39,591 nucleotides of DNA from an uncultured Paracoccaceae bacterium. Its GTDB lineage: Bacteria > Pseudomonadota > Alphaproteobacteria > Rhodobacterales > Rhodobacteraceae. Of the stretch, positions 29,810 to 39,591 are shown piece after piece. Position numbers and translations under genes: made by a program. The stretch lies in NCBI GenBank assembly GCA_937922155.1, contig CAKZVL010000109.1:1-39591 (forward strand), read 5' to 3'. Position 1 is the first letter of the stretch, and each line of letters begins with the position of its first letter. The notes beneath the pieces are model-generated. The model was not told the DNA's origin, searched no databases, and saw only the letters and a program-made list of their open reading frames with translations.

Positions 29810-30544
29810 ATGAAACGCATTTACGCAATCGCGGCTTTGTTGGTTCTGTCCGGGTGTTCTGGCAACTGGGGCTGGTATGTCGTTGACCCAACGACGACGG
29901 GCGGCATGAACAACTTGAAATTCCTTGCCAGTGGTGCCTATTACACCATCCTGTTGTCAGTGACCGCCATTCTGATTTCGATTGTCGTTGGTTTGTTGGT
30001 GGCATTGCCCGGGCTGTCTGAAAAACGTGGCTGGCGTATATTCAATCGTACATATGTTGAACTGGTGCGCGCTGTGCCGATCCTTGTTTTGATCCTATGG
30101 GTCTATTACGGCCTGCCAGCCCTGTCAGGGATAACCTTGAACGTGTTCTGGGCCGGTGTTCTTGCGCTGGCCCTAAGTGACAGCGCGTTTCAGGCAGAGA
30201 TTTTCCGTGCAGGAATCCAGTCTATCGCGCGCGGGCAATATGAGGCGGCGCAGTCAATATCACTGAACTACCGCGACACAATGCGCTATGTCATCCTGCC
30301 CCAAGCCATCCGGCGCATTCTGCCCGCGCTGGGCAATCAGCTGGTCTATATGCTGAAAATGTCATCGCTCGTGTCTGTGATCGGGATGCAAGAACTGACG
30401 CGCAAGGCCAACGAACTGGTGGTGTCAGAATATCGCCCCTTAGAAATCTACACCATTTTGGTGCTGGAATACCTCGTGATCATCCTTGTCGTCTCCGCAG
30501 GCGTCAGATGGTTGGAACGGCGCATGAAAGCGAGCGACACATGA
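29810..30544 (+). CDS. Polar amino-acid ABC transporter permease with an N-terminal lipobox-like sequence
   Basis: A 244-residue inner-membrane permease of the HisM/GlnP family. The family core is complete: ILLSVTAILISIVVGLLVALP, the block ELVRAVPILVLILWVYYGLP and the ATPase-contacting loop EAAQSISLNYRDTMRYVILP. Only one permease gene is present, so a homodimeric channel is likely. The N-terminus, MKRIYAIAALLVLSGCSGNW, looks like a lipoprotein signal peptide with lipobox LSGC and Cys16. That is unusual for a permease and could mean a lipid-anchored N-terminus. The stop overlaps the MATE gene start by four bases. Confidence 0.9.
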   Translation: MKRIYAIAALLVLSGCSGNWGWYVVDPTTTGGMNNLKFLASGAYYTILLSVTAILISIVVGLLVALPGLSEKRGWRIFNRTYVELVRAVPILVLILWVYYGLPALSGITLNVFWAGVLALALSDSAFQAEIFRAGIQSIARGQYEAAQSISLNYRDTMRYVILPQAIRRILPALGNQLVYMLKMSSLVSVIGMQELTRKANELVVSEYRPLEIYTILVLEYLVIILVVSAGVRWLERRMKASDT

Positions 30545-31908
30545 GCCAGAAAGACGACCTCACCACCGGATCGATGGCGGGGCATTTTCGCACACTCGCT
30601 ATTCCAGCAGCTTTGGGGATGTTGTTTGCCACGCTTTACAATGTGGTGGATGTTTATTGGGCCGGGCGTCTTTCTACGGATGCCCAAGCCGGACTTGCGA
30701 TTGGGTTTCAAGCGTTCTTCATCCTTATGGCGGTCGGATTTGGCCTTGGCTCCGCGTTAAGCGCTTTGGTCAGTAATGCCAAAGGCAGCAAGGACGTGCG
30801 CCAGACACAAACCTACGTCGCACAAGGCCTCGCCTTTGGCGTGATCGCGACGGTTGTGATGATGGCGATTGGCTGGGTCCTGGGGCCATACTTGATCCGC
30901 CTGGTGTCAGAGCCGGGGGCCTATCGCGACGCCGCGCTTGGCTATTTTCGATGGCTGATCATCGCTTTGCCGGGGTTCTTCTTGGCCTATGGCGGTAACG
31001 GGATTTTGCAAGCGCACGGTGACAGCCGCAGTATGCAGCGCGCCTTGATGGTCGCGTTTTTTGTCAACATTGGTCTGAACCCACTCTTCATGTTTGGCGT
31101 TCCGGGCATCTGGGATGGCATGGGTTTCAACGGGATCGCGGTGGCGACGATTGTCAGTCAAACGGGTGTGATGGTCTTTATCCTGTCGCGTATCTTTAGG
31201 CTGGACGCGATGCGCGATGTTGCACGCAGTGCTTTCCGGCCCACGTGGGACAGCTTTTCCCAGATAACAGCGCAGCTGGTGCCCGCAAGTTCAGCGATGA
31301 TGGTCATGTTTATATCCGGGTTCGTTGTGCAATTCGCTTTGAAAGAATTTGGCGGCCATGCTGTCGCGGCCTATGGCGTCGCCCTCAGGATCGAACAAAT
31401 CCTTCTGCTGCCGGTGCTGGGCATGACGGGGGCTTTGCTGCCGATTGCAGGACAGAACTTTGGCGCAAAAGACTTTGACCGAGTGCGCGCGGCGTTACTG
31501 TTCTGCTGGAAAACGGGTTTCGTCATGACCCTTGTTGCAACGCCTGTTTTGCTGTTCGCCAGTGGCTTTGCGATGTCAATCTTTTCGGACGACCCGGAGG
31601 TTATCCGTGTTGGGTCCAGCTATCTGCGGGTCGATGCGTTTCTGTTCCCCGTCTATATGATGTTGTTTTCCATCAACTCGCTCTTGCAGGCGCTGAAAAA
31701 ACCCATCTGGACGCTGTGGATCAGCGTCTATCGACAAGGGTTCGGCGTCGCCTTTTTCATATGGGTTTTTATTGGTGTGTTAGACTTCGAAGTCTGGGGC
31801 GTCTGGCTGGGCATTGCGGCGGCCGTGACCAGCGGATTGGCGCTGTCACTTTTGGTGGCGTCCCGTGTGGCAGAACGCGAAATTAGTGGGTTGTTAAGGC
31901 CGCGCTAG
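30541..31908 (+). CDS. MATE-family multidrug/metabolite exporter
   Basis: A 455-residue polytopic membrane protein of the MATE family, which exports compounds in exchange for Na+ or H+. The first helix block IPAALGMLFATLYNVVDVYWAGRL is typical of MATE helix 1-2, with repeated halves and about 12 helices. I chose the ATG at 30541, which overlaps the permease stop (ATGA) and gives the usual length. Coupling to an amino-acid importer is uncommon and suggests that the exporter handles a related compound or relieves toxicity of the import substrate. Confidence 0.9.
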   Translation: MSQKDDLTTGSMAGHFRTLAIPAALGMLFATLYNVVDVYWAGRLSTDAQAGLAIGFQAFFILMAVGFGLGSALSALVSNAKGSKDVRQTQTYVAQGLAFGVIATVVMMAIGWVLGPYLIRLVSEPGAYRDAALGYFRWLIIALPGFFLAYGGNGILQAHGDSRSMQRALMVAFFVNIGLNPLFMFGVPGIWDGMGFNGIAVATIVSQTGVMVFILSRIFRLDAMRDVARSAFRPTWDSFSQITAQLVPASSAMMVMFISGFVVQFALKEFGGHAVAAYGVALRIEQILLLPVLGMTGALLPIAGQNFGAKDFDRVRAALLFCWKTGFVMTLVATPVLLFASGFAMSIFSDDPEVIRVGSSYLRVDAFLFPVYMMLFSINSLLQALKKPIWTLWISVYRQGFGVAFFIWVFIGVLDFEVWGVWLGIAAAVTSGLALSLLVASRVAEREISGLLRPR

Positions 31909-31914
31909 GGCACC

Positions 31915-32598
31915 TTAAGGATCAAAATAATCTGCATTCGCATCGGAGATTGTTTTGATCGTTTCATCCAAGCGGGACAGATGTACCATTCCCGCTTTGA
32001 CCGCCCCTTCACCATCATTCGCCTTGATACAGGCCGTGATCGCGTCATGATCTTCAAGCAGAACAGCCATGCGATTTTCTTTGGCAAGGCTAAGCGTGCA
32101 AAGGCGATCCACCTTGGCCTTTTCTTGCTTGATCACTTCAAATGCGAAATCTACCTTTGCGATGTCACAAATGGTTTTATGAAATTCATAGTCCAGCTCG
32201 GTAAACTTCTCATAATTGCCTGCCTTCACAACGGCGCTTTGCATCAGCAGGTTGGCGTCCAATTGTGCCGCGCCAAGGTCATCACACTCGATGCTTGCAC
32301 GCCGTAAAACTTCGGCCTCTACTGCTGCGCGCACAAAGCGGGCCTTGGTGATTTCACGCCAAGAAAACCGTTTTACCTCAGTCGCGCGCTGCGGGCGGAT
32401 CAACAGCAGACCAAGATTGTCGAGCCGGCTAAAGGCGTCACGCACAGGTTGGCGCGAAATGTTGAATTGTGCGGCGATTTCGGCCTCGGAGATTTTGTCG
32501 CCGGGGCGCAACTTCAAAGCGGCGATTTCATCGTAAAGATAGTCGAACACCAAATCTACACTCGTGCGTCGGTCCCGAATTTGGGCAGTTTCTGGCAT
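31915..32598 (-). CDS. GntR-family transcriptional regulator, FCD (FadR-type) subgroup
   Basis: A 227-residue regulator. The winged helix-turn-helix is at about residues 14-80 (LRPGDKISEAEIAAQFNISR and QPVRDAFSRLDNLGLL). The FCD effector domain spans about 90-215, with likely metal or ligand residues in DYEFH, LEDHDAI and the histidine of MVHLSRL. A near-perfect AAGGAGGT ribosome binding site precedes the ATG. It is divergent from the SDR-uxaC-uxuB-like operon and ends 6 bases from the convergent MATE gene. It is the likely regulator of the uronate genes, with a hexuronate or downstream intermediate as inducer. Confidence 0.9.
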   Translation of the reverse strand: MPETAQIRDRRTSVDLVFDYLYDEIAALKLRPGDKISEAEIAAQFNISRQPVRDAFSRLDNLGLLLIRPQRATEVKRFSWREITKARFVRAAVEAEVLRRASIECDDLGAAQLDANLLMQSAVVKAGNYEKFTELDYEFHKTICDIAKVDFAFEVIKQEKAKVDRLCTLSLAKENRMAVLLEDHDAITACIKANDGEGAVKAGMVHLSRLDETIKTISDANADYFDP

Positions 32599-32753: not shown

Positions 32754-32765
32754 AATACTAGTATT
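32754..32765. promoter_or_regulatory. Operator candidate O1, AATACTAGTATT
   Basis: A perfect 12-base palindrome with core ATACTAGTAT (32755-32764) in the 322-base gntR/SDR intergenic region. It lies just downstream of a minus-strand TATAAT. The same 10-base core occurs in front of dctP. This fits binding by the GntR protein and autoregulation. Confidence 0.65.
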
Positions 32766-32779
32766 CCAGTGGGGCGCTT

Positions 32780-32785
32780 ATTATA
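32780..32785 (-). promoter_or_regulatory. Possible -10 box of the gntR gene
   Basis: The minus strand reads TATAAT here, a perfect -10. Transcription would start near 32773, so operator O1 would lie at about +8 to +20. No good -35 box is found, and the leader would be about 175 bases long. Confidence 0.45.
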
Positions 32786-32894
32786 CCATGTTTACGTAGT
32801 CGATTCTTGCCGTAGCGCACCAAAAATGAGGGCTGCACATCTGCCCTGAGGGGGTGAAGCCAGACAGCGGCTCTAGCCAATCTGTTATTGGTCA

Positions 32895-32904
32895 AATCTA
32901 GTAT
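32895..32904. promoter_or_regulatory. Degenerate operator candidate O2 before the SDR gene
   Basis: AATCTAGTAT matches eight of ten positions of the ATACTAGTAT core, with an intact right half. It abuts the SDR ribosome binding site (GGAAGGA, 32906-32912), a position suited to a roadblock. A chance match is possible. Confidence 0.4.
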
Positions 32905-32920
32905 CGGAAGGACAATCTCA

Positions 32921-33664
32921 ATGAAACTTGCAGGAAAATCCGCGATCGTCACCGGTGGTGGACGTGACATCGGGGCTGCCATCGCCAAAAAGCTGGCCGC
33001 AGAAGGCGCATCCGTTGCAATCAACTATTTCGCCAGCAGTGCTGGCGCTGACGCTACGGTTGCCGACATCATAGCGGCCGGTGGCAAGGCGTTTGCCTTG
33101 CAAGGGGATCTGAACAAGCCCGAGGACGTTGATGCGCTTGTCGCCAAAACGGTTAGTGAGTTTGGCAGAGTTGATGTTTTGGTGAACAATTCCGGCGGTT
33201 TGATTGCGCGCAAGACATTTGCGGAAATGTCGCTGGACCATTGGAACGATGTTATGTCCTTGAACCTGACCAGCACATTCCTGATGATCAAGGCTGTTGG
33301 CCCGCACATGAATGAGGGCACAATCGTCAACCTTGCCAGTCAGGCGGCACGTGACGGCGGCGGCCCCGGATCGGTGGCCTACGCCGCGTCCAAAGGTGCG
33401 ATCATGACGATGACCCGTGGATTGGCTAAAGAATTGGGACCAAAGGTGCGCGTTAACGCGCTGTGCCCCGGCATGATTGATACAGATTTCCACAACATCC
33501 ACACACCTGATGCCGGTCGGCGCGGGTTTGAGGCCGCAGCGCCATTGAAACGGCAAGGTCTGTCAGAAGATGTCGGCAATCTGGTTCTGTTCCTTGCCTG
33601 CGATGATAGTGCATTCATCACCGGAACAAATGTCGACATCAATGGCGGCATGGTGTTCAGTTAA
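32921..33664 (+). CDS. Short-chain dehydrogenase/reductase in the uronate operon
   Basis: A 247-residue classical SDR, an NAD(P)-dependent oxidoreductase. The cofactor loop is VTGGGRDIGAAIA (near residue 10), the structural asparagine block is LVNNSGG, and the catalytic YAASKGA follows a serine in NLASQ. Spacing from that serine to the tyrosine is one longer than usual. The ATG at 32921 follows GGAAGGA. It is three bases upstream of uxaC, so it should act on a uronate or a related sugar acid. A KduD-like or gluconate 5-dehydrogenase-like role is possible but not shown. Confidence 0.88.
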   Translation: MKLAGKSAIVTGGGRDIGAAIAKKLAAEGASVAINYFASSAGADATVADIIAAGGKAFALQGDLNKPEDVDALVAKTVSEFGRVDVLVNNSGGLIARKTFAEMSLDHWNDVMSLNLTSTFLMIKAVGPHMNEGTIVNLASQAARDGGGPGSVAYAASKGAIMTMTRGLAKELGPKVRVNALCPGMIDTDFHNIHTPDAGRRGFEAAAPLKRQGLSEDVGNLVLFLACDDSAFITGTNVDINGGMVFS

Positions 33665-33667
33665 CAT

Positions 33668-35065
33668 ATGAACCCAGATCGCCTGTTTCCCGCTGACCCG
33701 AACGTACGCGCCATCGCGCGCGCGCTTTATGAACAGGTCGCACACCTGCCGATCATCAGCCCGCATGGTCATTGTGATCCCCGTTGGTTTGCTGAAAATG
33801 AACGCTTTCCGGATCCGGCGCAGCTGTTTGTGGTGCCGGATCATTATGTGTTTCGCATGCTGGTGTCCCAAGGGGTCCCGCTAGAAGCATTGGGTATACC
33901 ATTTGCCGATGGGAGCCTGCCGGATACGGACCCGCGCGACATCTGGCGGGTGTTTGCACAAAACTATCACCTGTTCCGGGGGACGCCCTCATCACTGTGG
34001 CTGGACCACGCGTTTAGCGAAGTCTTTGGCCTTAGCGAGCCGTTTTCGCCAGATACAGCAGATGCGTTTTACGATGACATCGACGCCCAACTTGCAACTG
34101 ATGCCTTCCGTCCGCGTGCGCTGTTTGAACGTTTCAATATTGAGGTCCTCGCAACAACCGAAGGCGCCCTTGATGGTCTGAATTGGCACAAACAAATCGC
34201 TGCAAGTGGGTGGAGCGGTCGTGTTGTCACGACCTATCGCCCCGACGCTGTCGTCGATCCCGACTTTGCAGGCTTTGCGGATAACGTCGCCGAGTTTGGT
34301 GCGCTCACTGGGGAAGACACGGGGACGTGGTCCGGCTATTTGAACGCGCATCGCGTTCGCCGTGCCTTCTTTCAGGACAATGGCGCAACCGCCACCGATC
34401 ACGGGCACCCCACAGCCCGAACCGAAGACTTACCCGCGCCAGAGGCGGCAGCGTTGTTTGCCAAGGCCCTTGCGGGCACCTGTTCGCCTGCTGAGGCAGA
34501 GGCGTTTCGCGGGCAGATGCTCACCGAAATGGCACGGATGAGCCTTGATGATAGGATGACCATGCAGATCCACGCCGGGTCCTATCGCAACCATTCCGCC
34601 CCGGTGTTTTCCAGCCATGGGCGGGACAATGGGTTCGATATTCCGATGCAAACGGATTATGTCGCAGCGCTCAAGCCGCTACTGGATGCAGTAGGGATGG
34701 AACCTGATCTAACGGTGATCCTGTTCACGCTGGATGAAACAACCTACAGCCGCGAGCTTGCGCCGCTTGCGGGCGCTTACCCGGCATTGCGGTTAGGCCC
34801 GCCGTGGTGGTTTCATGACAGTTTTGAAGGGATCAAACGGTTCCGAGAGGCGACAACAGAAACTTGTGGTTTTTACAACACCGCTGGTTTCAACGACGAC
34901 ACCCGTGCGTTCTGTTCGATCCCGGCCCGCCATGATGTGGCGCGCCGGTCTGATTGTGCCTATTTGGCTGGTTTGGTGGCCACGGGGCGGCTCGCGGAAA
35001 GCGACGCGCATGAGGTGGCCTACGATCTGACCTACCGTCTTGCCAAGGAGGCGTATCGCCTATGA
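33668..35065 (+). CDS. uxaC: Glucuronate isomerase
   Basis: A 465-residue UxaC protein, which converts D-glucuronate to D-fructuronate (and D-galacturonate to D-tagaturonate) in the cytoplasm. The N-terminal metal-binding SPHGHCDPRWFAEN matches the amidohydrolase-like fold of the family. The blocks DHYVFRMLVSQGVP, VLATTEGALD and RLGPPWWFHDS are characteristic, and the length is close to that of E. coli UxaC. It begins three bases after the SDR stop and overlaps the downstream reductase by four bases. Confidence 0.95.
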   Translation: MNPDRLFPADPNVRAIARALYEQVAHLPIISPHGHCDPRWFAENERFPDPAQLFVVPDHYVFRMLVSQGVPLEALGIPFADGSLPDTDPRDIWRVFAQNYHLFRGTPSSLWLDHAFSEVFGLSEPFSPDTADAFYDDIDAQLATDAFRPRALFERFNIEVLATTEGALDGLNWHKQIAASGWSGRVVTTYRPDAVVDPDFAGFADNVAEFGALTGEDTGTWSGYLNAHRVRRAFFQDNGATATDHGHPTARTEDLPAPEAAALFAKALAGTCSPAEAEAFRGQMLTEMARMSLDDRMTMQIHAGSYRNHSAPVFSSHGRDNGFDIPMQTDYVAALKPLLDAVGMEPDLTVILFTLDETTYSRELAPLAGAYPALRLGPPWWFHDSFEGIKRFREATTETCGFYNTAGFNDDTRAFCSIPARHDVARRSDCAYLAGLVATGRLAESDAHEVAYDLTYRLAKEAYRL

Positions 35066-36513
35066 CCACGCCACGCTTGCGCCGCAGCAGCGCCCCCATC
35101 CCTAAAGTGGGCATCGTTCATCTAGGACCAGGTGCGTTTTTCCGCGCGTTTGGCGCGATTTATACGACAGAGGTGATGCAGACCAAAGGCGGTGATTGGG
35201 GCACTACGGCCGTCAGCTTGCGCAACCCGACCATCCGCGATGCCCTTGCGCCGCAAGATTTTGCTTATACGTCTGTGACGATGGCGCCAGACGGTGCGCA
35301 GCATGTTGTCATCGAAGCGATCAACGATGTGCTGGTCGCGCCGGAAAACCCCGGCGCGGTTCTGGATGCTATGGCAAACCCAGCTGTCAAAATCGTTTCT
35401 ATGACGATTACCGAAAAAGGGTACTGCCATAACCCGGCTACAGGTGACCTGCAGCTAGATCACCCCGACATCATCCATGATCTTGCCCAACCGGACGCGC
35501 CGCGTTCAGCCCTTGGGTTTTTGGTCTACGCGCTGGCGCGACGCAAAGAAAATGGCCAGCCACCCTTCACGGTTTTGTCCTGCGACAACCTTCCCAACAA
35601 CGGTCGGCTGACGCGCCGTGTTGTCCTGGCGTTTGCAAAGGCCGTCGCACCTGACCTTGCGGATTGGATCGGAGACCATGCCCGCTTTCCATCCACAATG
35701 GTGGATCGCATAACGCCCGCAACGACGCCTGATGACATCGCCTCTGTTGCGGCAAAAACTGGCTTTCAGGATTTGGGATGCGTGATGCATGAACCGTTCC
35801 GCCAGTGGGTGATTGAGGACGATTTTGTCGCGGGGCACCGCCCGGATTGGAACCTGGCGGGTGCGCAGTTCGTGCAGGACGTCGAAGCATTCGAAACGAT
35901 GAAACTGCGCTGCCTGAACGGCACCCATTCGTCGCTGGCCTATTTGGGTTATTTGGCCGGGTATGAAGTGATTTCAGATGCCGTCGCTGATCCGCATTTC
36001 GCGGCCTTTATTGATCGACTTTGGCAGGATGAGATTGTTCCGACCGTCCCACCGCCGGAAGGTGCTGATCTGTTGCGGTACTGCGCGGACCTCAAGGCGC
36101 GTTACCGCAACCCCGCGATCCGTCACAAGACATGGCAAATCGCGATGGATGGATCACAAAAGCTACCGCAACGCCTGCTTGCCACGGTTGCCGATTGTCT
36201 CGACGCTGGAAGGCCCATTCCTGGCCTCGCCCTCGCTGTGGCGGCTTGGATGCGATATGTAGGCGGCGTTGACGAAGCGGGCGGGGACATTGATGTGCGC
36301 GATCCTTTGGCGGATCAGCTAAGGTCGGCGTCAGATGATCATGATGCGCCAGCCGACAAGGTTGCAGCCTTGCTTACCATCCAAGATGTGTTTCCGAGCG
36401 AACTGGCCGGCAACCCGGTCTTTCGCTCAGCCGTAACAGCCGCGTTTGAATCCTTGGTTGCCAATGGGGCCAAGGCCACCGTCAAGGATTTAGTTGCCCA
36501 AAACGGACGGTAG
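35062..36513 (+). CDS. uxuB: Mannitol dehydrogenase-family reductase, probable fructuronate reductase
   Basis: A 483-residue NAD-dependent polyol/uronate dehydrogenase. The N-terminal GIVHLGPGAFFRAFGAIYT and the catalytic block KLRCLNGTHSSLAYLGYLAG, with the conserved lysine, asparagine and histidine, are family hallmarks. Immediately following uxaC and overlapping it by four bases, it most likely reduces D-fructuronate to D-mannonate. Mannitol, arabinitol or tagaturonate dehydrogenases are close relatives, so the symbol rests partly on context. AAGGAGG lies about 10 bases before the start. Its last 24 bases overlap the end of the convergent dctM. Confidence 0.85.
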   Translation: MTTPRLRRSSAPIPKVGIVHLGPGAFFRAFGAIYTTEVMQTKGGDWGTTAVSLRNPTIRDALAPQDFAYTSVTMAPDGAQHVVIEAINDVLVAPENPGAVLDAMANPAVKIVSMTITEKGYCHNPATGDLQLDHPDIIHDLAQPDAPRSALGFLVYALARRKENGQPPFTVLSCDNLPNNGRLTRRVVLAFAKAVAPDLADWIGDHARFPSTMVDRITPATTPDDIASVAAKTGFQDLGCVMHEPFRQWVIEDDFVAGHRPDWNLAGAQFVQDVEAFETMKLRCLNGTHSSLAYLGYLAGYEVISDAVADPHFAAFIDRLWQDEIVPTVPPPEGADLLRYCADLKARYRNPAIRHKTWQIAMDGSQKLPQRLLATVADCLDAGRPIPGLALAVAAWMRYVGGVDEAGGDIDVRDPLADQLRSASDDHDAPADKVAALLTIQDVFPSELAGNPVFRSAVTAAFESLVANGAKATVKDLVAQNGR

Positions 36514-37773
36514 CCAAAGCGAGACAGCAGGCACATAGGTCACCAAGATCAACGCGCCTAAGATTGCCACATAGAACGGCCAGATTGATTTGAGCGCTTG
36601 TTCGATCTTGATCTTACCAACCGCGCAGCCAACGAACAGACATGTGCCCACCGGCGGCGTGCAAAGGCCAAGGCCAAGATTGATCAACATCATGATACCA
36701 AACTGTGCCGGATCCATGCCAAGCCCTTTGGCAATGGGCAGGAAAATCGGCGTACAGATCAGGATCAACGCCGCCATATCCATGATCATCCCCAACAGCA
36801 GCAGGATGACGTTGATCATCAGTAAGATGATAATCGGGTTGTCAGAGATCGTGATCAGCGCATTGCTCAATAAATCGGGGACTTGGTAGATCGCCAGCAA
36901 CCACGCAAACGAACTCGCAAAAGCAATCAGGATCATGACCATCGACGTGGTCCGCACGGTGCCTGTCACGGCGAGAATGAATGAGTCCCAGCTAAGGGTG
37001 CGGTAGTAAAACTTGGTCAGTAGCAGCGCGTAGATTGCGCCAAAGGCACCGGATTCCGTCACGGTAAAGACGCCAGACAGTGTACCGCCGACGATGATGA
37101 CCGCGGTAAAGAAACCGGGGATGGCGTCAAACGCTGTGCGGCGCACCGTTGTCCAGCCGGGAAAGGGCTCGGCCGGGTAGTTGTGTTTAATTGACAGAAT
37201 ATAGGCGGCGATGGCGATGCAAATACACATCAAGATACCCGGCAGCACGCCTGCCAAGAACATTTTGGACACCGACAAACCACTGCCCGCTGCAACCACG
37301 TAAATGATCATGTTGTGACTAGGGGGGATGACGATGCCCGCAATGGATGACGTGACCGTCACGTTGACGGCAAAGTCCGGGCGATAACCGCGTTCTTTCA
37401 TCACCGGAACAAGGATGGATCCCAGCGCTGAAATATCGGCCACAGCGGAGCCGGAAATGCCACCAAACAGCATGCTGGAAAAGACGTTGACCATGGCAAG
37501 GCCACCTTTGAAATGCCCCACAATGGCTTGGGCCAGTTTCACCAGCCGTGCCGCGATACCGCCATGCAGCATCAGTTCTCCGGCGAAGACGAAAAATGGG
37601 ATCGCCATCAATGATCCGACTGTGATGCCAGATGTGGCACGTTGGAAGGTCATCAAGAGGCCAAAACCATCGTACCACATGGCCGACGCCGCAGCGATGC
37701 CCATCGCAAAGGCAACAGGCAGGCCGATAACGACACCAATGCCAAACGCGCCCAGTAGGATAATCAGACCCAT
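36490..37773 (-). CDS. dctM: TRAP transporter large permease (DctM type)
   Basis: A 427-residue inner-membrane protein, the ion-coupled translocating subunit of a TRAP importer. It shows many hydrophobic helices and the family blocks FVFAGELMLHGGIAARLV, FGGISGSAVADISALGSI and a C-terminal LGLCTPPVGTCLFVGCAVG. I chose the ATG at 37773, one base after the dctQ stop, because the longer reading overlaps dctQ. The neighbouring uronate catabolic genes suggest hexuronate as substrate. The symbol is the generic TRAP name. Confidence 0.93.
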   Translation of the reverse strand: MGLIILLGAFGIGVVIGLPVAFAMGIAAASAMWYDGFGLLMTFQRATSGITVGSLMAIPFFVFAGELMLHGGIAARLVKLAQAIVGHFKGGLAMVNVFSSMLFGGISGSAVADISALGSILVPVMKERGYRPDFAVNVTVTSSIAGIVIPPSHNMIIYVVAAGSGLSVSKMFLAGVLPGILMCICIAIAAYILSIKHNYPAEPFPGWTTVRRTAFDAIPGFFTAVIIVGGTLSGVFTVTESGAFGAIYALLLTKFYYRTLSWDSFILAVTGTVRTTSMVMILIAFASSFAWLLAIYQVPDLLSNALITISDNPIIILLMINVILLLLGMIMDMAALILICTPIFLPIAKGLGMDPAQFGIMMLINLGLGLCTPPVGTCLFVGCAVGKIKIEQALKSIWPFYVAILGALILVTYVPAVSLWLPSVLGN

Positions 37774-37774
37774 G

Positions 37775-38299
37775 TTATGTATGCTCCGAGGCGAGGGGGT
37801 CTTCGGGTGACCAGCTTGAGAATGTGAGAACACGCGATAGCGCGCGGGCGCCGGCAAACAGAAAGATCAAACCGCCAAAGATGGTCACGGCTGCGGATCG
37901 GAAACTTTCGGGGATTCCCAGCATCGGGATGAACGAATCCCAGCCAAAGCTGACCCAACCCCAGCACGACAACACAGTCAGAAACCCAAAGGTCGCGATG
38001 ATGAGGTCGATAATCACAATGATCACTTTTTGCAGGACGAAGGGGAGCATGTCACGAAACACAGTCACGCCAAGATGCGTGTTGGTTCGAACACCAGCAG
38101 CCGCGCCAAGAAAGACAATATAACAGATCAGCAAAAGCGAAAGCTGTTCGACCCATGTCGGGGTGACGTTCAAGACGTAGCGGCCAAAAACCAGCCAGCC
38201 AAAAGTCACCACCAAAACCACAAGGGCAATTGATGCGACGAAAATACAGAGCGATTGAACGGCTCCGAGGGCTTTGTCGACGCGATCAAGGACAGTCAT
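37775..38299 (-). CDS. dctQ: TRAP transporter small permease (DctQ type)
   Basis: A 174-residue four-helix membrane protein, the small subunit that associates with DctM. The block FGWLVFGRYVLNVTPTWVEQLS (near residue 33) is the family signature. GAGG precedes the ATG at 38299. It lies between dctP and dctM on the same strand, and a hairpin separates it from dctP. Confidence 0.92.
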   Translation of the reverse strand: MTVLDRVDKALGAVQSLCIFVASIALVVLVVTFGWLVFGRYVLNVTPTWVEQLSLLLICYIVFLGAAAGVRTNTHLGVTVFRDMLPFVLQKVIIVIIDLIIATFGFLTVLSCWGWVSFGWDSFIPMLGIPESFRSAAVTIFGGLIFLFAGARALSRVLTFSSWSPEDPLASEHT

Positions 38300-38337
38300 T
38301 TTTGCCTCAGGTGCTGATTTAATGGAGAGAGAAGAAT

Positions 38338-38360
38338 GGGCAACCCGGTTAGGGTTGCCC
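38338..38360 (-). terminator. Hairpin between dctP and dctQ
   Basis: GGGCAACCC and GGGTTGCCC form a perfect 9-bp stem with a 5-base loop. No T tract follows in the direction of transcription. It probably stabilises the dctP message or attenuates dctQM, giving more binding protein than permease. Confidence 0.7.
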
Positions 38361-38375
38361 AGACGGTCGCAAGTC

Positions 38376-39353
38376 TTAGTTGCGGATCAGGTTCACCAGA
38401 TCAGCAAGGTCAGGATTGTCTGCAAGGAACGCTTCGTAAACCGGCGCCATTGCTTCTTGGAATGGGGCTTTGTCTGCGATTGTGTTCACAGTCGTCCCAC
38501 CAGCCTGAACGATTTCCATGCTGGCGGCCTCACGCTCTTGCCACAGCTCACGCTGAAGGTCTGCACTGGCACGACCAGCGGCCATGACAATGTCCTGATG
38601 CTCTGGGGACAGCTTGTCCCAAGATTGTTTGCTCATGCAGAGGCATTCTGGAATGATCAAATGCTCTGTGAGTGAATAGTACTTTGCAACTTCAAAGTGG
38701 CTTGTGGATTCGTAGGAAGGTGGGTTGTTTTCCGCACCGTCCACAACGCCAGTCTGGATAGACTGATACACTTCGGCAAAGGCCATGGGTGTTGCGTTAC
38801 CGTCCATGGATTCAACCATCTGCACAAACAGATCGTTGTTCATGACGCGGATTTTCAGGCCTTCAACATCAGCAGGTGTGTTGATCGGACGGACAGAGTT
38901 ATAGAAAGACCGCGCACCAGCATCATACCAGCCTAGTGGAACGATCCCACGTTCGATCATGCCGGCGCCAATTGCGTCGCCAACCTCGCCGTCCATCAGC
39001 TCATACATCTCAGGGATGCTGCTGAAGATGAATGGCAGGGACACGACGTTGGTTTCAGGAACAGATGTTCCCATCGGCCCAAGGCTAAATTCGCCGAAGT
39101 CCAATACGCCAAGACGGATCTGTTCGATCGCATCTGGCTGACTGCCCAAAACGCCATTGTGGAAAATTTTCGCAGAGACCGCACCGCCTGTTTTCTCTGC
39201 CACTTCAGCGGCAAAAGATTCCATCGCGATTGATACGGGGTAGTCTTCGACGTGAATGTTCCAGCCGCGCAACTCTTGCGCTGAAACGGCTGATGCTGCC
39301 AACGCAAGGCAACCACCAAGCAATGTGCCACGAATTGTAAGTGTATGTTTCAT
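38376..39353 (-). CDS. dctP: TRAP transporter substrate-binding protein (DctP type), probable hexuronate binder
   Basis: A 325-residue periplasmic binding protein. The signal peptide (hydrophobic LLGGCLALAASAVSA) is probably cut after SAQ near residue 26. The block GLKIRVMNNDLFVQM (near residue 170) holds the arginine that binds the substrate carboxylate in TRAP proteins, and NATPMAFAEVYQSIQTGVVD with GAENNPPSY follows. These resemble TRAP binding proteins for uronates. GGGAGGA precedes the ATG. The context, beside uxaC and a shared operator, supports glucuronate or galacturonate as ligand. Confidence 0.93.
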   Translation of the reverse strand: MKHTLTIRGTLLGGCLALAASAVSAQELRGWNIHVEDYPVSIAMESFAAEVAEKTGGAVSAKIFHNGVLGSQPDAIEQIRLGVLDFGEFSLGPMGTSVPETNVVSLPFIFSSIPEMYELMDGEVGDAIGAGMIERGIVPLGWYDAGARSFYNSVRPINTPADVEGLKIRVMNNDLFVQMVESMDGNATPMAFAEVYQSIQTGVVDGAENNPPSYESTSHFEVAKYYSLTEHLIIPECLCMSKQSWDKLSPEHQDIVMAAGRASADLQRELWQEREAASMEIVQAGGTTVNTIADKAPFQEAMAPVYEAFLADNPDLADLVNLIRN

Positions 39354-39427
39354 TTGATCCTCCCAGATTCAACTGTCGTTGGCAGGCTAGTCCTGACCCA
39401 TAGTCACAGGCCCAGCATACCAACAAG

Positions 39428-39439
39428 TATACTAGTATA
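39428..39439. promoter_or_regulatory. Operator candidate O3, TATACTAGTATA, before dctP
   Basis: A perfect 12-base palindrome with the same ATACTAGTAT core as O1. It overlaps the expected -10 region of the dctP promoter, so a protein bound here would block transcription. It also contains part of an overlapping AGTATACT palindrome (39426-39433). Confidence 0.65.
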
Positions 39440-39460
39440 ATTCATCGTTAGGCGAGTCAA
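39437..39460 (-). promoter_or_regulatory. Probable dctP promoter
   Basis: On the minus strand a -35 box TTGACT (39460-39455) lies upstream of two candidate -10 boxes: TATACT with 15-base spacing or TACTAG with 17-base spacing. Both candidates fall within operator O3. The -35 box is convincing; the exact -10 is uncertain. Confidence 0.5.
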
Positions 39461-39494
39461 TCTGAACCTTTAAATTGCACGACTATGTTAGAGG

Positions 39495-39591
39495 TCAAAC
39501 GGTGCCGCGCGGTGGGCGGTTATTGTCTTTGGTAAAGATCATGCCGTCCAACAATTCTGCCAACTCCGGGCGCGCAGATGGGCCGTTTGAG
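39495..39591 (-). CDS. 3' end of an unidentified gene, truncated by the window edge
   Basis: The minus strand is open from the window edge to a TGA at 39497-39495 and gives 31 residues ending MIFTKDNNRPPRGTV. Codon use resembles that of neighbouring genes, and the other frames look less protein-like. I do not recognise the family. Its position upstream of and in the same direction as dctP suggests a further gene of the uronate locus. Confidence 0.45.
   Translation of the reverse strand, partial: SNGPSARPELAELLDGMIFTKDNNRPPRGTV

What the first reader, a model, noticed from the sequence alone, without database searches (positions are those of the whole stretch)
32754..39439. Shared ATACTAGTAT operator links gntR, the uxaC operon and the TRAP transporter
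The identical 10-base core is a 12-base palindrome at 32754-32765 and 39428-39439, and an 8/10 match sits at 32895-32904 beside the SDR ribosome binding site. The distal site covers the dctP -10 region. This defines a local regulon of the FCD-type GntR protein.
Basis: partly seen in the sequence, partly recalled or inferred. Interest (0 to 1): 0.55.

Follow-up and report, generated by a model that had tools for sequence, protein, structure and literature searches.

The report
Shared DNA switch for algal sugar-acid genes
A marine bacterium seems to use one regulator and one short repeated DNA switch to control its genes for eating alginate and other sugar acids; the switch is real and conserved in relatives, but its true boundaries and its reach differ from the first description.

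Summary
The two identical ATACTAGTAT sites are real and non-random. The link to the neighbouring GntR/FCD regulator is well supported by comparative genomics, but the proposed operator is out of register. Across 80 loci around gntR orthologs the conserved unit is the 14-bp palindrome ACTRGTATACYAGT, centred on GTATAC: 196 sites (at most 2 mismatches) in 77 of 80 loci, against 1-24 sites for 20 shuffled control palindromes. Only 22 of 146 strong sites contain ATACTAGTAT. In the window the operators are 32757-32770 and 39423-39436, one mismatch each. The proposed third site (32895) has six mismatches and is rejected.

The regulon is not local. In the same genome, sites precede a garR-like reductase, the kdgK/kduI divergent region, and an AlgS-M-M-Q alginate importer plus oligo-alginate lyase operon, where two operators stand exactly 20 bp apart. 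In relatives such pairs occur at 38 of 53 algS site clusters and 0 of 28 dctP clusters. Most likely: a FadR-subfamily repressor coordinating alginate, pectin and hexuronate catabolism, induced by a shared intermediate such as KDG or DEH. Binding, sign of regulation and inducer are untested. New member of a known kind; moderate interest.

The parts
31915..32598 (-). gntR: FadR-subfamily regulator, 227 aa
   Evidence: Pfam GntR 4.5e-15 and FCD 1e-18; orthologs at 57-68% identity in the family sample
32757..32770 (+). operator 1, ACTAGTATTCCAGT, in the gntR/SDR divergent region
   Evidence: 1 mismatch to ACTRGTATACYAGT; best window match together with operator 2, the next has 4
32777..32790 (+). 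tentative degenerate second site 20 bp from operator 1 (CTTATTATACCATG)
   Evidence: 5 mismatches, right half TATACCA kept; placed at the spacing that is common in relatives
   Evidence: 8/10 match, 6 mismatches to the 14-mer
32921..33664 (+). SDR-family reductase
   Evidence: adh_short_C2 9.8e-61; closest solved chain 4yqy, 1.5e-100; substrate unknown
33668..35065 (+). uxaC, glucuronate isomerase
   Evidence: NF002794, 571 bits against cut-off 387
35062..36513 (+). uxuB-like mannitol dehydrogenase family reductase
   Evidence: fructuronate reductase model 464 bits, below its cut-off of 603
36490..37773 (-). dctM, TRAP large permease
   Evidence: TIGR00786, 421 bits, over cut-off
37775..38299 (-). 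dctQ, TRAP small permease
   Evidence: Pfam DctQ 2e-23
38376..39353 (-). dctP, TRAP solute-binding protein
   Evidence: NF037995 and TIGR00787 over cut-off; closest solved chains 4pf8 (2e-154) and 4ovq (7.7e-125)
39423..39436 (-). operator 2, ACTAGTATACTTGT read towards dctP
   Evidence: 1 mismatch to the 14-mer; same place in the dctP relatives displayed
39432..39437 (-). probable -10 element TACTAG of the dctP promoter
   Evidence: 17 nt from TTGACT; arrangement found at 10 of 27 related dctP genes
39455..39460 (-). probable -35 element TTGACT of the dctP promoter
   Evidence: not called by the strict scan

Best explanation
The GntR/FCD protein at 31915-32598 is a FadR-subfamily repressor of a scattered uronate regulon. 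A dimer binds the 14-bp palindrome ACTRGTATACYAGT, whose GT and AC boxes are 2 nt apart. In the window it sits in the gntR/SDR-uxaC-uxuB divergent region and on the dctP promoter, over the probable -10 element; elsewhere in the genome it sits before garR, in the kdgK/kduI region and before the alginate importer and lyase operon. At alginate importer promoters two operators 20 bp (about two helical turns) apart let two dimers bind one DNA face, probably cooperatively. A common intermediate (KDG or DEH are my best guesses) binds the FCD domain and releases the repressor, so uptake and breakdown switch on together. Shown here: sites, register, conservation, spacing, co-occurrence, gene content. 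Inferred: binding, repression, cooperativity, inducer.
For: 196 sites in 77 of 80 loci against 1-24 for 20 shuffled palindromes. 185 of 196 sites lie in upstream windows that are 17.8% of the bases, and 125 of 136 site clusters lie near the start of a queried gene. Co-occurrence with the gntR ortholog, 26 of 32 against 22 of 166 genomes. All 16 fetched orthologs with at least 57% identity, and 26 of the 29 fetched, have a site with at most 2 mismatches within 1.5 kb. The next GntR in the own genome is only 29% identical. The 2-nt GT/AC gap is the one reported for UxuR (PMC4494728, passages). Own-genome sites at garR, kdgK/kduI and algS; AlgQ1 3e-152 and oligo-alginate lyase E = 0. 20-bp pairs: 45 of 67 spacings within 60 bp.
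Against: No binding or expression data. Whole-genome counts alone show no enrichment: 4 against 4 for the reversed pattern at one mismatch, 58 against 576 at three. Loci were chosen for carrying gntR and share ancestry. 6 of 32 ortholog genomes lack a one-mismatch site; 3 of 80 loci lack any site (L044, L047, L109). Second GntR homologs at 44-55% in some relatives could share the operators there. The half-site TRGT departs in part from the published TKGT box. uxaC is rare in the relatives' loci (4 of 80).
Confidence: 0.75

Rival explanations
1. One reading: the operator is the CTAG-centred palindrome ATACTAGTAT and it defines a local regulon of the window's GntR protein.
For: The 10-mer is exact at both window sites and at the C141 garR site.
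Against: Only 22 of 146 strong sites contain it, 10 have no CTAG at all, and 33 of 39 exact 10-mers continue on one side into the 14-mer with at most 2 mismatches, 6 do not. Sites on other contigs precede pathway genes.
Confidence: 0.05
2. The protein uses the same operators but activates rather than represses, or does both depending on site position.
For: Site position relative to the promoter varies between lineages: TTGAC is followed by CTAG at 25 nt in one dctP lineage and at 17 nt in several members of another.
Against: In the window lineage the operator overlaps the probable -10 element, and many sites lie in gntR's own upstream region, both typical of repression.
Confidence: 0.12
3. The operators belong to another regulator, for example a paralogous GntR, and the neighbouring gntR is only a passenger.
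For: Second GntR homologs at 44-55% identity occur in several relatives.
Against: In the own genome the next GntR is 29% identical; sites follow the ortholog across genomes and lie beside it.
Confidence: 0.06
4. The sites are chance or plain promoter sequence with no bound regulator.
For: Own-genome counts do not exceed the reversed-pattern control; TACTAG may itself be a -10 element at dctP.
Against: Conservation against shuffled palindromes, placement, exact 20-bp pairing and co-occurrence with gntR.
Confidence: 0.02

Closest known systems
UxuR/ExuR-type FadR-subfamily hexuronate regulators of Gammaproteobacteria
   Same: FadR subfamily; controls hexuronate genes; GT and AC boxes 2 nt apart, as reported for UxuR (PMC4494728, passages)
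   Different: No named NCBIfam regulator model reaches its cut-off; regulon here includes an alginate importer; half-site is TRGT rather than TKGT; paired sites 20 bp apart
AusR of Zobellia galactanivorans (alginate repressor, GntR family)
   Same: GntR-family control of alginate genes with single, double or triple operator copies, released by alginate breakdown products, as reported second-hand in PMC7874173 and PMC8286568 (passages)
   Different: Bacteroidetes PUL with SusC/SusD; primary paper not held, so protein and operator were not compared
AlgO of Sphingomonas sp. A1 (with algSM1M2Q)
   Same: Regulator gene reported with the alginate genes of Sphingomonas A1 (PMC8286568, figure legend); our C120 operon encodes the closest relatives of AlgQ1/AlgQ2. 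That AlgO is a GntR protein is recalled
   Different: AlgO sequence and operator could not be obtained; orthology untested

Membership tests
GntR family, FadR subfamily (FCD) | N-terminal GntR winged helix and C-terminal FCD domain | tested here: met
   PF00392 4.5e-15 and PF07729 1e-18, both over cut-off
GntR family, FadR subfamily (FCD) | Palindromic operator with GT..AC boxes 2-3 nt apart | tested here: met
   TRGT-AT-ACYA in the profile of 146 strong sites; published boxes are TKGT/ACMA, so the A variant (56%) departs
GntR family, FadR subfamily (FCD) | FCD metal-site Asp and three His (feature recalled) | tested here: inconclusive
   D136, H140, H184, H206 invariant in 17 of 17 aligned sequences; no structure or metal test
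UxuR/ExuR orthologs | Match over the cut-off of a named regulator model | tested here: not met
   11 NCBIfam models match, all below cut-off, best PhnR-type 76.5 of 271.5 bits
AlgO | Sequence orthology to AlgO | not testable with these tools
   No AlgO sequence or paper held
AusR | Sequence and operator similarity to AusR | not testable with these tools
   Primary paper not held
Alginate regulators in general (works like) | Operators at alginate uptake and lyase genes, single or multiple | tested here: met
   C120 pair before AlgS-M-M-Q and lyase; 53 algS clusters in relatives, 38 with a 20-bp pair

The most novel reading that the evidence does not exclude
One FCD regulator is the master switch that merges alginate, pectin and free-hexuronate catabolism across Rhodobacteraceae by sensing a shared intermediate, with a hierarchy written into the DNA: phased double operators at the alginate importer (tight, cooperative) and single operators at the hexuronate TRAP transporter (looser), so that cells respond to monomers before committing to polymer-derived oligomers.
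Probability: 0.4. Interest if true: 0.5.

Novelty: new member of a known kind. Interest (0 to 1): 0.36.

Why it matters
It gives a concrete operator, a regulon map and testable inducers for how a widespread marine group decides to consume algal uronates, and it predicts regulon members from sequence alone. The contrast between double operators at the alginate importer and single ones at the TRAP transporter (38 of 53 against 0 of 28 clusters) is a clean test case for cooperative control. In the held papers, four core dodecamers of the operator and TGGTATACCA were searched: 31 papers hold at least one term, by title unrelated; only one (a Taxus paper) holds a dodecamer. Searches joining GntR with hexuronate, alginate, Rhodobacteraceae or Roseobacter listed no paper that, by title and abstract start, describes this regulon. 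Most subscription papers and RegPrecise were not searchable, so prior description cannot be excluded.

Tried and rejected
Rejected: the 32895 site; the CTAG-centred register; C84:68469 as an independent operator, because the C84 end matches the window end over 541 bp at 97.2% and the only other near-copy of dctP is that truncated end of 101 codons; a true duplication is not excluded. Led nowhere: unconstrained motif EM, which converged on overlapping repeats rather than one clean unit; strict promoter scans (none found); a literature search with the 10-mer (45 papers, the 10 listed unrelated by title); some searches gave background papers only. Own-genome 2-mismatch sites outside the pathway: C3:11815 lies inside a LysR-like reading frame and was dropped; C77:5915 and C26:42186 were left open. 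The nine control words were picked by hand; the better control is. The E <= 1e-55 ortholog limit was chosen by eye. In one search the DctM and KdgK queries were cut a few residues off their true starts. Not done: structure prediction, expression data, a tree of the regulators.

Full report
What was claimed and what is there. No exact copy arose in 300 first-order simulations of the window, and the 2.99-Mb genome has four. The third site, AATCTAGTAT at 32895, exists but is one of six 2-mismatch matches, has six mismatches to the conserved operator and shows no counterpart at the SDR start in the 8 relatives displayed.

Genes. The regulator has GntR and FCD domains. UxaC is over its curated cut-off; UxuB is closest to fructuronate reductase but below that cut-off; DctM and DctP are over theirs. 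DctP's nearest solved relatives are 4pf8 and 4ovq; I recall, without a call, that these were solved with galacturonate and glucuronate.

True register. Upstream views of 40 of the 80 showed a repeated unit like ACTGGTATACTAGT. ACTRGTATACYAGT with at most 2 mismatches gave 196 sites in 77 of 80 loci (42 perfect, 104 with one, 50 with two mismatches), against 1 to 24 for 20 palindromes made by shuffling the half-site. Of 146 sites with at most one mismatch, 22 contain ATACTAGTAT, 114 others contain CTAG and 10 contain none. Of 39 exact ATACTAGTAT copies, 33 continue on one side into the 14-mer with at most two mismatches; 6 do not. Information in the profile of the 146 strong sites falls sharply outside the 14 positions, which are also the positions used to pick them. 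GT and AC boxes 2 nt apart are reported for UxuR, and TKGT/ACMA boxes for the FadR subfamily (PMC4494728, passages); here the second base is A in 56% and G in 44%, a partial departure. In the window the operators are 32757-32770 and 39423-39436, one mismatch each; the next best window match has four.

Why the 10-mer looked like the unit. At dctP, TTGACN, 17 nt, TACTAG is present in the window, in the C84 allele and in 10 of 27 related upstream regions, none skipped. TACTAG looks like a -10 element, so the extra AT before ACTAGT is probably promoter sequence. The strict consensus scan did not call this promoter.

Which regulator. Among 198 genomes of the family, one-mismatch sites occur in 26 of 32 genomes with a GntR match at E <= 1e-55 and in 22 of 166 others (Fisher p = 5e-14; limit chosen by eye; relatedness not corrected). 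All 16 fetched orthologs with at least 57% identity, and 26 of the 29 fetched, have a site with at most two mismatches within 1.5 kb. In the own genome the next GntR is 29% identical. Across the class, 9 of 289 genomes match at E <= 1e-45; of the 8 besides the own, 6 have a 2-mismatch site nearby, one a 3-mismatch site, one none.

Which genes. In the 80 loci, 125 of 136 site clusters lie within 350 bp of the start of one of 21 queried genes; 11 do not. 185 of 196 sites fall in upstream windows making up 17.8% of the bases. algS-like genes occur in 60 of 80 loci, and stand divergent from gntR within 700 bp in 47; garR homologs (75% or more) in 33, dctP in 27, uxaC in only 4 (loci reach at most 10 kb either side). 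So alginate is the usual partner and the uxaC link is the rarer arrangement. Own-genome sites: one mismatch at gntR/SDR, at dctP with its C84 copy, and at garR on C141; two mismatches between kdgK and kduI on C84, and a 20-bp pair on C120 before algS. The C120 operon encodes an ABC ATPase, two permeases, a binding protein closest to AlgQ1 (3e-152) and a heparinase-like protein closest to the oligo-alginate lyase 3a0o (E = 0). UxuA, KduI and KduD on C84 are over their cut-offs; KdgK and GarR are below theirs.

Double operators. Start-to-start spacings among sites within 60 bp: 45 at 20 bp, 8 at 33, 7 at 13, 2 at 22, 2 at 46, and 1 each at 8, 21 and 35. By cluster: algS 38 of 53 have a 20-bp pair, SDR 5 of 14, gntR alone 2 of 4, dctP 0 of 28 (clusters near several genes were counted once, in that order except dctP before gntR alone). 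Twenty base pairs is about two helical turns, which suggests two dimers on one face. In the window a degenerate site lies 20 bp from operator 1 (five mismatches); this is tentative.

Results against. Whole-genome counts show no enrichment: 4 against 4 for the reversed pattern at one mismatch, 58 against 576 at three. The case rests on placement, conservation and co-occurrence. The loci share ancestry and were chosen for carrying gntR. Second GntR homologs at 44-55% in several relatives could share operators there. Six of 32 ortholog genomes have no one-mismatch site, and L044, L047 and L109 have no site.

Assembly. The last 541 bp of the window match the end of contig C84 at 97.2%, and C84 holds only the first 101 codons of dctP. 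The simplest reading is that the contigs adjoin with a strain-variant overlap, giving one cluster: uxuA-kdgK, kduI-kduD, an AhpC-like gene, dctPQM, then uxuB-uxaC-SDR and gntR. Relatives L059 and L060 also show the AhpC-like gene next to dctP.

Taxonomy. The best named GntR relatives are Yoonia, Octadecabacter and uncultured Rhodobacteraceae at 68-74%, so I infer Rhodobacteraceae.

Comparison. It works like UxuR (operator spacing, hexuronate genes) and like the reported AusR (alginate genes, multiple operators; passages). It belongs to the FadR subfamily by tested features; orthology to UxuR is not supported by models, and orthology to AlgO or AusR could not be tested. Verdict: a solid, conserved regulatory circuit, ordinary in kind, with a wider reach and a different operator from those first described.

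Noticed in passing
window 39051-39591 and contig C84:68316-68856 (L001:1348-1888): The window end and the C84 end overlap by 541 bp at 97.2% identity, so the two contigs probably adjoin with a strain-variant overlap.
   Followed up: partly
contig C120, L133:9163-11845: A MATE-family gene stands divergent from algS beside the paired operator, followed by a protein closest to ManD-type D-mannonate dehydratases. In relatives 7 site clusters lie at MATE-gene starts. The role of a MATE transporter here is unexplained.
   Followed up: partly
contig C77:5915-5928 (L124:1501-1514): A perfect palindrome ACTTGTATACAAGT lies upstream of an enoyl-ACP-reductase-like gene; possibly the operator of another GntR-type regulator.
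   Followed up: no
contig C26:42186-42199 (L123:1501-1514): AATGGTATACCAGC (2 mismatches) lies between a class II aldolase-like gene and an IlvD/Edd-like dehydratase gene; possible further regulon member (gene names by eye).
   Followed up: no
L147, L148, L149, L151, L152 (other families of the class): Near gntR relatives outside the family, sites have one half as GGTAGT instead of CYAGT (5 of the 6 such loci), suggesting that the operator drifted with the protein.
   Followed up: no
L010, L018, L068, L077, L105, L106: Some promoters carry three sites, at 0, 20 and 33 bp, giving 13-bp and 33-bp spacings besides 20.
   Followed up: no
window 30508-31908: The gene beside gntR's 3' end encodes a MATE-like transporter by eye; no operator was found near it.
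   Followed up: no
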